Below, one piece after another: positions 22,221 through 29,936 of a stretch of 36,924 nt of DNA (position 1 is the first letter of the stretch; each line of letters begins with the position of its first letter). The DNA comes from Spirochaetaceae bacterium (GTDB lineage Bacteria > Spirochaetota > Spirochaetia > Treponematales > Rectinemataceae). The position numbers were made by a program, and so were the translations under genes. A model generated the notes under the pieces. It had not been told where the DNA came from and ran no database searches. It worked only from the letters and a program-made list of their open reading frames with translations. The stretch covers positions 1 through 36,924 of the forward strand of contig JAJFUL010000230.1 of assembly GCA_021372425.1 (NCBI GenBank), given 5' to 3'.

Positions 22221-22260
22221 TTTGTGAGAATAGCCCGTCGTAGCGGGCTATTCTCACAAA
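22221..22260. repeat. Stem-loop 2, perfect 17-bp inverted repeat
   Basis: TTTGTGAGAATAGCCCG (22221-22237) and its exact reverse complement (22244-22260) flank a TCGTAG loop. Read on the plus strand it is followed by A-rich sequence, not a T-run. It may terminate transcription from one or both sides or be a small palindromic element. Confidence 0.85.
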
Positions 22261-22282
22261 AAACACCACTATTAAGTTGGCG

Positions 22283-22306: not shown

Positions 22307-22335
22307 AAAAAAGCCGCCCTTCAACAGGCGGCTTT
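22307..22335 (-). terminator. Terminator of the S10-spc-alpha operon
   Basis: On the minus strand AAAGCCGCC and GGCGGCTTT (complement of 22310-22318 and 22327-22335) form a 9-bp stem followed by six T (22307-22312). It lies about 50 bases after the last small gene. Its plus-strand side is followed by TTTCTCTT and may also serve livF weakly. Confidence 0.9.
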
Positions 22336-22384
22336 CTCTTGCTGCATCGACGTCTGGCTTTTACCGGCGCCTGCATCTCTTTCT

Positions 22385-22555
22385 TTATTTCTTGTTGGCG
22401 AGCGTAGCCTTACAGACTTTGCAAATCTTGGTCTTCTTGCCATCAATTTCCTGCTCGTACAGAACCTTTACATTTTCGCGCTTGCAGACAGGGCAGATTC
22501 CGCGGCCGCTGGCCGGTAATTCTCTGATGCCCTTTCCTCTATGTGCTTTGGACAT
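22385..22555 (-). CDS. 56-residue zinc-ribbon protein at the end of the ribosomal operon
   Basis: A very small basic protein with two CxxC knuckles, C21-P-V-C24 and C45-K-V-C48, spaced as in a zinc ribbon. The N-terminus is MSKAHRGKGIRELPASGRG and the C-terminus is lysine-rich (ATLANKK). I do not recognise a named family. It could be a ribosome-associated or small nucleic-acid-binding protein, given its charge and its place as the last gene after rplQ. A strong GGAGGA site precedes ATG 22555, and the gap to the rplQ stop is only 14 bases. The operon terminator follows. Composition, ribosome site and position make it a real gene; the function is unknown. Confidence 0.82.
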   Translation of the reverse strand: MSKAHRGKGIRELPASGRGICPVCKRENVKVLYEQEIDGKKTKICKVCKATLANKK

Positions 22556-22569
22556 GGTTTCCTCCGACC

Positions 22570-23214
22570 TTATTCAGCTTTGGGTTCGGCAGAACCCGTG
22601 CCTTCGGCCCCGGCCTTCTTCCCGGCTTCAGCTTTCTTGGGTGTTGCCGCCTTCTTTGCCGGCGCTGCCTTTTTCTCGACTGCAGGCTTCTTCTCTGTTG
22701 CAGCCTTTTTCGCTGCCGGCTTTTTCGGAGTCTCGGCCTTCTTTTCGGGCTCCGGCTTCTCTTCTGCTGCGGCTTTCTTTCCCGCTGCGGCTTTCTTATC
22801 AATCTTGGCTTTCTTATCGGCCTTCTTCTTGTCTTTCGCAGCCTTCTTGTCTTCGAACTTATAATCGACCAGTTCGAGCACCACCATATCGGCAGCATCG
22901 TTAGCACGATCGCCAATCCTGAGTATCCTCGTATAGCCGCCAGCCCTCTCTTTGAACCGTGGTCCAATTTCGGTGAAAAGCTTCGCGAGAACCGCTTCGT
23001 CCTGGATCTTCCTTGCGGCGATCCTCCGGTTATGAACGCTGTCCACCTTTGCCCTGGTAATCATCTTCTCGGCGGCACGGCGTGTCTCGAGCGCCTTGGC
23101 GTGGGTCGTAACTATCCTCTCGCATTTGAACAAAACAGTCATCTGATTGCGGATAAGCGCCTTTCGATGTGCCGCCATCCTGTTCAGTTGGTTAAATCCA
23201 CTTCTATGCTTCAT
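22570..23214 (-). CDS. rplQ: 50S ribosomal protein L17 with long Lys/Ala-rich C-terminal tail
   Basis: L17 is a large-subunit protein near the exit-tunnel side of the ribosome. Residues 1-120 are a normal L17 core ([46 protein letters not shown]). Residues 121-214 are a low-complexity tail of repeated KKAA, KKPA and EKKP units. The tail is highly basic and probably disordered, resembling histone H1 tails. A usual L17 is about 120-130 residues. It overlaps the rpoA stop by 11 bases (ATGAAGCATAG), so translation is coupled. The tail remains in frame with no frameshift and ends just before the zinc-ribbon gene. Confidence 0.95.
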
Positions 23215-24259
23215 CGGTCTCTTCCTTCTTCATGGTAAGTTTCAGATAACTGCGGAGCGGCGCATAATCGGTCATGCCGAGACTTAAATTCCATTCACCA
23301 AGCTTAGCCTTGATCTCAAGAAGGGACTTCTTGCCGAAGTTGCGGGTCTTCGTGATTTCCTCTTCCGTTTTTCTCGTAAGGTCGCCAATTGTCTTGATGT
23401 TTGCATTCTTCAGGCAATTGGAAGATCGAACCGACAATTCCAGCTCTTCCACCGGCGTGTTCAGGATCTGCCTGACACGATCCTCGATCTCATCATTCTG
23501 CTCGTCACCGGAAGTCTCATCCTCATCGAAATTGATGAAGATAGAGAAATGATCCTTGGCGATCTTCGCCGCTTCACCCAAGGCATTCTCGGGCTTCAGC
23601 GTGCCATCGGTCCATATTTCCAGGTTCAATTTATCATAGTCGGAGCGCTGTCCGACTCTGGTGGGCTCGATCGAGTACCGCACTTTCGTCACGGGCGAGA
23701 ATATCGAATCCATCGGAATTGTCCCGACAATCTCGACATAGCGCTCATTGACTTCGGCAGGAACATAGCCCCTGCCCAGGTCGACCTGTATCTCGAGGTC
23801 GAGATGGACATCTGAACTGAGGGATGCGATCTTGATTTCCGGATTAAGCACTTCAAGCGCCTTGTCCTGGCCGAAGAACGAACCCTTAATCTCTTCCATT
23901 CCCTTAATTTCATAAAGGAACGTCGCCTGTTCTTCATCGTTCGGCAAGCGCACCCTGAGCTGCTTCAGGTTGTTGAGAAATTCGATCGTATCCTCGACGA
24001 CTCCAGGTATGGTTTCGAACTCGCTGGTGATGATGTGCTGTGCGCCTTCCTCGTCATACTGCACGATCCGGACCGCCGTGATGGCATAGCCCTGGATCGA
24101 CGAGAGAAGAATGCGCCGCAGTGTATTGCCCACCGTGGTTCCATATCCCGGCTCAAAGGGGTAGGCGATGAATTTCCCGTAAGAAGGCCCTGACTCGCTT
24201 TGCTCGTAGGTGATTCCCTTCGGCCTCTTGAAACCTTTGAGAAGGTTCTTTCGTGCCAT
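23204..24259 (-). CDS. rpoA: DNA-directed RNA polymerase alpha subunit
   Basis: Assembles the polymerase core and contacts UP elements and activators. The N-terminal domain shows [20 protein letters not shown] and the [10 protein letters not shown] helix. The C-terminal domain has [19 protein letters not shown] and a [12 protein letters not shown] helix that binds DNA. The 351 residues are slightly long, with an acidic linker ([17 protein letters not shown]) between domains. It lies nine bases after rpsD and overlaps rplQ, as in the bacterial alpha operon. Confidence 0.97.
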
Positions 24260-29750: not shown

Positions 29751-29936
29751 CTACCAGCTCGATTTCGTCACGCCAGGCAGTTTGCCTTCGGAAGCGAGCT
29801 TCCGGAAGCAAATTCGGCACATGTCGAATTTTCTCATGTAACCCCTGGACCTGCCGCAGATATGGCAGCGGCGAACCTTCCGGGTCATGTACTTCGGCTT
29901 CTTTTCAGCCTTTAGAATCATCGCCTTTCGAGCCAT
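29751..29936 (-). CDS. rpsN: 30S ribosomal protein S14, zinc-binding type Z
   Basis: The short, 61-residue S14 with a zinc site (C24, C27, C40, C43) in [20 protein letters not shown]. The closing LPGVTKSSW is the universal S14 ending. The longer zinc-free paralogue found in some bacteria is not in the window. It follows rplE by 11 bases. Confidence 0.97.

What the first reader, a model, noticed from the sequence alone, without database searches (positions are those of the whole stretch)
22385..22555. Unrecognised 56-residue zinc-ribbon protein ends the ribosomal operon
It has four cysteines in two CxxC pairs, a basic composition, a strong GGAGGA site and a 14-base gap to rplQ, and it lies just before the operon terminator. 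Genes in this operon are almost all ribosomal, so it may be an overlooked ribosome-associated or translation factor. Its small size makes it easy to miss in annotation.
Basis: partly seen in the sequence, partly recalled or inferred. Interest (0 to 1): 0.6.

Follow-up and report, generated by a model that had tools for sequence, protein, structure and literature searches.

The report
Unrecognised zinc-finger protein beside rplQ
A 56-residue zinc-finger protein encoded at the end of a spirochaete's ribosomal operon is a real, strongly conserved gene found in most of class Spirochaetia (its syphilis-spirochaete version, TP0214, is an abundant "uncharacterized protein"), and it looks like a ribosomal protein that went unnoticed because Borrelia, the one spirochaete whose ribosome structure we found, lacks it.

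Summary
The gene is real. It lies on the minus strand at 22385-22555, 14 nt after rplQ, with a GGAGGA site and a strong terminator hairpin behind it. The 56-aa protein has two CxxC pairs and net charge +10. It is in 37 of 39 near relatives and 214 of 297 Spirochaetia genomes. It is as conserved as uL17 and RpoA, with dN/dS 0.05-0.17. It directly follows rplQ in all 131 testable Treponematales loci; in other orders it is free-standing. No Pfam, NCBIfam or PDB entry matches. AlphaFold gives a confident zinc knuckle, beta-hairpin, knuckle and helix.

It is not bL38, the extra protein of the Borrelia ribosome: the window's genome has its own bL38, and Borrelia lacks this gene. The T. pallidum orthologue is TP0214, the most abundant protein in one proteome study, unremarkable in a later one, and listed as an antimicrobial-peptide candidate.

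Two lineages replaced the zinc ligands in the pattern CxVTG...SK, as Cys-minus bL28 does; bL38 also has Cys-plus and Cys-minus forms. That is typical of zinc ribosomal proteins.

Best reading: an unrecognised ribosomal protein of most Spirochaetia, with a distant homologue in Paenibacillus. Ribosome binding is inferred, not shown.

The parts
22385..22555 (-). Gene of the 56-aa Cys4 zinc-finger protein (orthologue of T. pallidum TP0214)
   Evidence: ORF; conservation; dN/dS 0.05-0.17; AlphaFold mean pLDDT 88
22484..22495 (-). First zinc knuckle C21-P-V-C24 (CxxC)
   Evidence: CxxC...CxxC in 162 of 163 loci fetched up; Cys-minus forms in the T. pallidum genus and family f38
22412..22423 (-). Second zinc knuckle C45-K-V-C48 (CxxC) at the start of the C-terminal helix
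22499..22555 (-). Basic N-terminal tail MSKAHRGKGIREL...GRG, as conserved as the zinc site
   Evidence: the K, RG and GRG positions are also kept in the Paenibacillus homologue
22560..22565 (-). Shine-Dalgarno GGAGGA
   Evidence: GGAG-type site before nearly every orthologue
22570..23214 (-). rplQ (uL17/bL17), 14 nt upstream, with a Lys/Ala/Pro-rich C-terminal tail
23204..24259 (-). rpoA, next gene upstream in the same operon
22307..22338 (-). Intrinsic-terminator-like hairpin (13 bp, U-rich 3' arm) ending the operon after this gene
   Evidence: z -4.1

Best explanation
The gene encodes a small, basic zinc-finger ribosomal protein that has not been recognised as one. Four cysteines bind one zinc ion and hold a knuckle, beta-hairpin, knuckle and helix core. 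The conserved tail MSKAHRGKGIR...GRG is basic and glycine-rich, like the rRNA-threading tails of known ribosomal proteins. The protein probably sits on rRNA in stoichiometric amounts and stabilises a local rRNA fold; which subunit and site is unknown. In Treponematales it is made from the same transcript as uL17 and RpoA. In the T. pallidum genus and in family f38, side-chain packing has replaced zinc. SHOWN: gene, conservation, synteny, absence from Borrelia, Cys-plus/Cys-minus forms, difference from bL38. PREDICTED: the fold. INFERRED: zinc binding, rRNA contact, stoichiometry, identity with TP0214 (from gene order and mass).
For: Directly after rplQ (gap -17 to 115 nt) in all 131 testable Treponematales loci, some genomes fetched twice. 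As conserved as uL17 and RpoA: mean 74.6%, 70.6% and 70.9% over 123 loci; dN/dS 0.05-0.17. In 214 of 297 Spirochaetia genomes and kept in the 1.1-Mb T. pallidum-sized genome. Net charge +7 to +12 in the first 56 residues. Zinc-finger model at pLDDT 88. TP0214 tops the NSAF abundance table of a T. pallidum proteome above L34, S18, L17 and L28 (PMC5015957). Its transcript rises about 2.4-fold with rpsJ, rplC, rpsC and rpsS (PMC8525777). Its ligands are replaced as CPVTG...[IV]SK in two lineages, the same replacement as in Cys-minus bL28 of these spirochaetes. A proven ribosomal protein of the class, bL38, also has Cys4 and Cys-poor forms.
Against: No physical evidence of ribosome binding. Outside Treponematales the gene is not next to ribosomal genes and its neighbours vary. 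It has been lost from, or is undetectable in, Borrelia and several other families, so it is dispensable for a spirochaete ribosome. A 2023 deep T. pallidum proteome did not find TP0214 highly abundant (PMC10600179). No homology to any ribosomal protein by profile, and no significant fold match.
Confidence: 0.58

Rival explanations
1. A ribosome-associated but non-stoichiometric factor: an assembly, hibernation or stress factor, or a modulator of a translational GTPase, binding rRNA through the same zinc finger.
For: Operon position, basic charge and strong conservation fit equally well. Patchy loss suits an accessory factor. Abundance reports conflict.
Against: No enzymatic or second domain in 56 residues. 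Conservation equals that of uL17 and RpoA. Retained in a strongly reduced genome.
Confidence: 0.2
2. A transcription factor or RNA polymerase accessory subunit (zinc ribbon), co-transcribed with rpoA.
For: rpoA is two genes upstream. Zinc ribbons are common in transcription proteins; weak hits to TFIIB-type and NrdR-type ribbons.
Against: Those hits are below the curated cut-offs. Outside Treponematales the gene is not linked to rpoA. The basic RG/GRG tail and the Cys-plus/Cys-minus switching are ribosomal-protein traits.
Confidence: 0.1
3. A secreted cationic antimicrobial miniprotein, as the T. pallidum orthologue was listed in the literature.
For: PMC9200625 covers TP0214 in its T. pallidum miniprotein survey, and PMC10600179 calls it an AMP candidate.
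Against: Operon position, strong purifying selection, a Cys4 metal site conserved across the class, no secretion signal, occurrence in free-living spirochaetes. Small basic ribosomal proteins score as AMP-like in general (general knowledge).
Confidence: 0.03
4. A diverged orthologue of bL38, the extra 50S protein found in the Borrelia ribosome.
For: Similar length, beta-hairpin with a DG/NG turn, patchy cysteines.
Against: The window's genome has a separate bL38 match. In G153 and G212 the two genes lie at different places. hhalign probability is 0.3-1.3%, against 98.6% for a true remote homologue.
Confidence: 0.01

Closest known systems
T. pallidum TP0214 / TPANIC_0214 (UniProt R9UVZ6), 'uncharacterized protein', 7 kDa
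   Same: Orthologue: the gene between rplQ (TP0213) and grpE, 65 aa, 64% identical to the window protein
   Different: Has lost C24, C45 and C48 (CPVTG...VSKVG), so presumably binds no zinc
bL38 of the Borrelia burgdorferi ribosome (BB0162, PDB 8FMW chain Ai)
   Same: Small extra ribosomal protein of Spirochaetia, basic, with Cys4 and Cys-poor forms
   Different: No sequence homology; separate gene in the same genomes
bL28 (Pfam PF00830)
   Same: CxxC, then hairpin, CxxC and helix order; Cys-minus forms use the same CxVTG / VS replacements
   Different: bL28 has a 20-25-residue rRNA loop between knuckle and hairpin and no N-terminal SKAHRGKG tail; hhalign probability at most 0.8%; the genome has its own bL28
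uS14 type Z
   Same: Small Cys4 finger with the second CxxC starting a helix, encoded in the same operon
   Different: hhalign probability 1.3%, different spacing; uS14 is present separately at 29751-29936
Paenibacillus cellulosilyticus unannotated 62-aa ORF (NZ_CP054613.1)
   Same: 44% identical over the tail and the zinc finger, hhalign 98.6%
   Different: Other phylum; free-standing, far from rplQ

Membership tests
Ribosomal protein (structural, stoichiometric) | Present at about one copy per ribosome in purified subunits or a structure | not testable with these tools
   No PDB chain resembles it; the Borrelia structure cannot inform because the gene is absent there
Ribosomal protein (structural, stoichiometric) | Basic, small, conserved like other ribosomal proteins | tested here: met
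Ribosomal protein (structural, stoichiometric) | Encoded with ribosomal protein genes | tested here: inconclusive
   Met in all 131 testable Treponematales loci, not met in other orders
Ribosomal protein (structural, stoichiometric) | High cellular abundance | tested here: inconclusive
   Top NSAF in PMC5015957; not highly abundant in PMC10600179
Zinc ribosomal proteins with Cys-plus and Cys-minus forms (bL28, bL31, bL33, bL36, uS14) | Two CxxC pairs whose ligands are lost in some lineages while the protein is kept | tested here: met
bL38 | Sequence or profile homology and one-to-one replacement of bL38 | tested here: not met
bL28 | Profile match to PF00830 or significant hhalign score | tested here: not met
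uS14 type Z / bL36 | Significant profile similarity | tested here: not met
Any curated zinc-ribbon family (Pfam, NCBIfam) | Score above the curated cut-off | tested here: not met

The most novel reading that the evidence does not exclude
Most Spirochaetia, including the syphilis spirochaete, carry a bona fide ribosomal protein that is in no catalogue of ribosomal proteins. It has Cys-plus and Cys-minus forms and was missed because the only spirochaete ribosome structure we know of is from Borrelia, which lost the gene.
Probability: 0.5. Interest if true: 0.72.

Novelty: new member of a known kind. Interest (0 to 1): 0.56.

Why it matters
If right, it adds a ribosomal protein to treponemes and most other Spirochaetia. 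It would explain TP0214, an abundant T. pallidum protein now discussed as a possible specialised or antimicrobial miniprotein. It would also mean the Borrelia ribosome is not a complete model for treponemal ribosomes, which matters for ribosome-targeting antibiotics. One ribosome preparation from a culturable species that has the gene would settle it.

Tried and rejected
(1) bL38 identity: Borrelia bL38 was extracted from fetched Borrelia DNA, confirmed against PDB 8FMW, and rejected because both genes co-occur. (2) bL28 paralogy: strong visual likeness, but hhalign 0.6-0.8%, so kept only as structural analogy. (3) uS14 and bL36: rejected. (4) Foldseek against PDB: best E 0.4, not usable. (5) A diverged homologue downstream of rplQ in genomes without a hit: none seen. 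(6) A consistent neighbour outside Treponematales: none; the neighbouring ORFs looked mixed by eye (M48-like peptidase, MTA/SAH-nucleosidase-like, MurC-like, not scanned against a library). (7) rRNA changes correlated with presence or absence: not done, the LSU rRNA searches failed. (8) Presence in Bacillota beyond one Paenibacillus record: not testable, genome scans exhausted. (9) Viral contigs: only a 25-residue fragment overlapping a longer ORF on the other strand; phages: none. (10) The PDB profile hit to LUC7 (E 0.013) covers only part of the finger and was judged chance.

Full report
WHAT IS THERE. The finding is correct and lies on the minus strand. The ORF 22385-22555 encodes MSKAHRGKGIRELPASGRGICPVCKRENVKVLYEQEIDGKKTKICKVCKATLANKK. 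Fourteen bases separate it from the stop of rplQ (22570-23214; uL17, Pfam E 3e-33). GGAGGA lies 4 nt before the ATG. Behind the gene a 13-bp hairpin with a U-rich arm (22307-22338) folds far better than shuffles, z -4.1.

IS IT REAL? Yes. A match is present in 37 of 39 relatives (27 of 27 high-quality genomes) at 54-100% identity, in 214 of 297 Spirochaetia genomes, and in 226 of 392 genomes sampled from the phylum, all matches listed being in the same class. A scan of one genome per species across bacteria and archaea gave 451 relatives; the 80 best are all spirochaete or unassigned MAG records. dN/dS against seven relatives is 0.05-0.17, and mean identity over 123 loci is 74.6%, against 70.6% for uL17 and 70.9% for RpoA.

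SYNTENY. In Treponematales the gene directly follows rplQ in all 131 fetched loci where this can be seen (gap -17 to 115 nt; some genomes were fetched twice; in one locus, L125, the contig ends too soon). In the other orders it is not near rplQ and has no constant neighbour. Operon position is thus a lineage-specific clue, and conservation is independent of it. The gene is missing from Borrelia and several other families, with no diverged copy seen after rplQ.

WHAT IT LOOKS LIKE. No Pfam or NCBIfam family reaches its cut-off, and no PDB chain matches by profile. AlphaFold with 61 sequences gives pLDDT 88: knuckle C21-C24, strands 29-37 and 40-45, helix 46-55 starting at the second cysteine pair. 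I read this as a treble-clef-like finger. Foldseek finds only insignificant zinc-finger neighbours. The N-terminal tail is as conserved as the zinc site (invariant M1, S2, K3, H5, R6, G7, G9, G17, R18, G19).

NOT bL38. The obvious candidate was bL38, the unannotated 50S protein found in the Borrelia burgdorferi ribosome (BB0162; PMC10618245). I read the Borrelia gene from fetched DNA and confirmed it against PDB 8FMW chain Ai. A search with it finds bL38 in 272 of 297 Spirochaetia at E <= 0.5, including the window's own genome at E 1e-9. In G153 and G212 the bL38 gene and our gene lie at different places. Profile comparison gives 0.3-1.3% probability; the same method gives 98.6% for a true remote homologue. 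Because Borrelia lacks our gene, its ribosome structure could not have shown it.

THE T. PALLIDUM ORTHOLOGUE. In a 1,139,633-bp genome that by size and gene order is T. pallidum, the orthologue sits between rplQ and grpE. Gene order and mass identify it as TP0214 (inferred). TP0214 heads the table of most abundant T. pallidum proteins (NSAF 19.6; L34 13.1, S18 12.5, L17 9.4, L28 8.9; PMC5015957). A 2023 proteome did not find it highly abundant, remarked on this, and calls it an antimicrobial-peptide candidate (PMC10600179; see also PMC9200625). Its transcript rises about 2.4-fold in rabbits, as do rpsJ, rplC, rpsC and rpsS (PMC8525777).

CYS-PLUS AND CYS-MINUS FORMS. Of the first 163 loci all but T. 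pallidum keep CxxC...CxxC. The T. pallidum genus, and one genome of the distant family f38, carry CPVTG...[IV]SK instead. Spirochaete bL28 shows the same exchange: CDICGKG...ICTRC in the Cys-plus form, CxITGK...[LV]S[AT]RA in the Cys-minus form. T. pallidum bL28 keeps its cysteines, so this is not a genome-wide loss of zinc sites. bL38 itself has Cys4 forms in other spirochaetes and a form with a single cysteine in Borrelia. Swapping zinc ligands while keeping the protein is well known for bL28, bL31, bL33, bL36 and uS14 (general knowledge). It is the best sequence-level hint of class membership, but not proof.

WIDER RANGE. A full-length homologue (44% identity, same tail and cysteines) is an unannotated 62-aa ORF in Paenibacillus cellulosilyticus, free-standing and 1.2 Mb from rplQ. 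The family is therefore not confined to spirochaetes; I could not survey Bacillota further.

MECHANISM. Most likely (0.58) it is a structural ribosomal protein: a zinc finger docked on rRNA with a basic tail threaded into it, subunit unknown. A non-stoichiometric ribosome factor is the main rival (0.2), then an RNA polymerase or transcription factor (0.1). The antimicrobial idea is poorly supported (0.03). Ribosome binding was not and could not be tested here.

Noticed in passing
L261:144-311, L262:157-324, L263:113-277, L264:107-271, L265, L266, L267 (other Spirochaetia genomes); own genome hit: bL38 (BB0162), reported as unfindable by homology to the Flavobacterium protein, is nearly universal in Spirochaetia, and many members have a four-cysteine zinc-ribbon form (CxCGGEI...CxxC); the Borrelia protein with a single cysteine is a Cys-minus form.
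   Followed up: partly
L258:4001-4189: Unannotated 62-aa homologue of the window protein in Paenibacillus cellulosilyticus (Bacillota), on a 2.7-Mb replicon labelled a plasmid that also carries rplQ.
   Followed up: partly
window 22570-22866: rplQ carries a Lys/Ala/Pro/Glu-rich C-terminal tail of about 100 residues after the L17 domain; NCBIfam's 'sunset domain' L17 variant matches only below its cut-off.
   Followed up: no
L032, L046, L072, L089, L096, L115 (C-termini): Several Treponema orthologues of the window protein carry long Ala/Glu/Pro-rich C-terminal tails, up to more than 100 residues.
   Followed up: no
L218:1501-1701 and L208-L211, L213, L214: Cys-minus forms in two distant lineages use the same replacement (CPVTG...SK), as in Cys-minus bL28: possible convergent solution to losing zinc. 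Independence of the two losses was not tested on a tree.
   Followed up: partly
window 22224-22262: Long inverted repeat GTGAGAATAGCCCG...CGGGCTATTCTCAC followed by A's, probably the terminator of the convergent plus-strand ABC-transporter operon.
   Followed up: no
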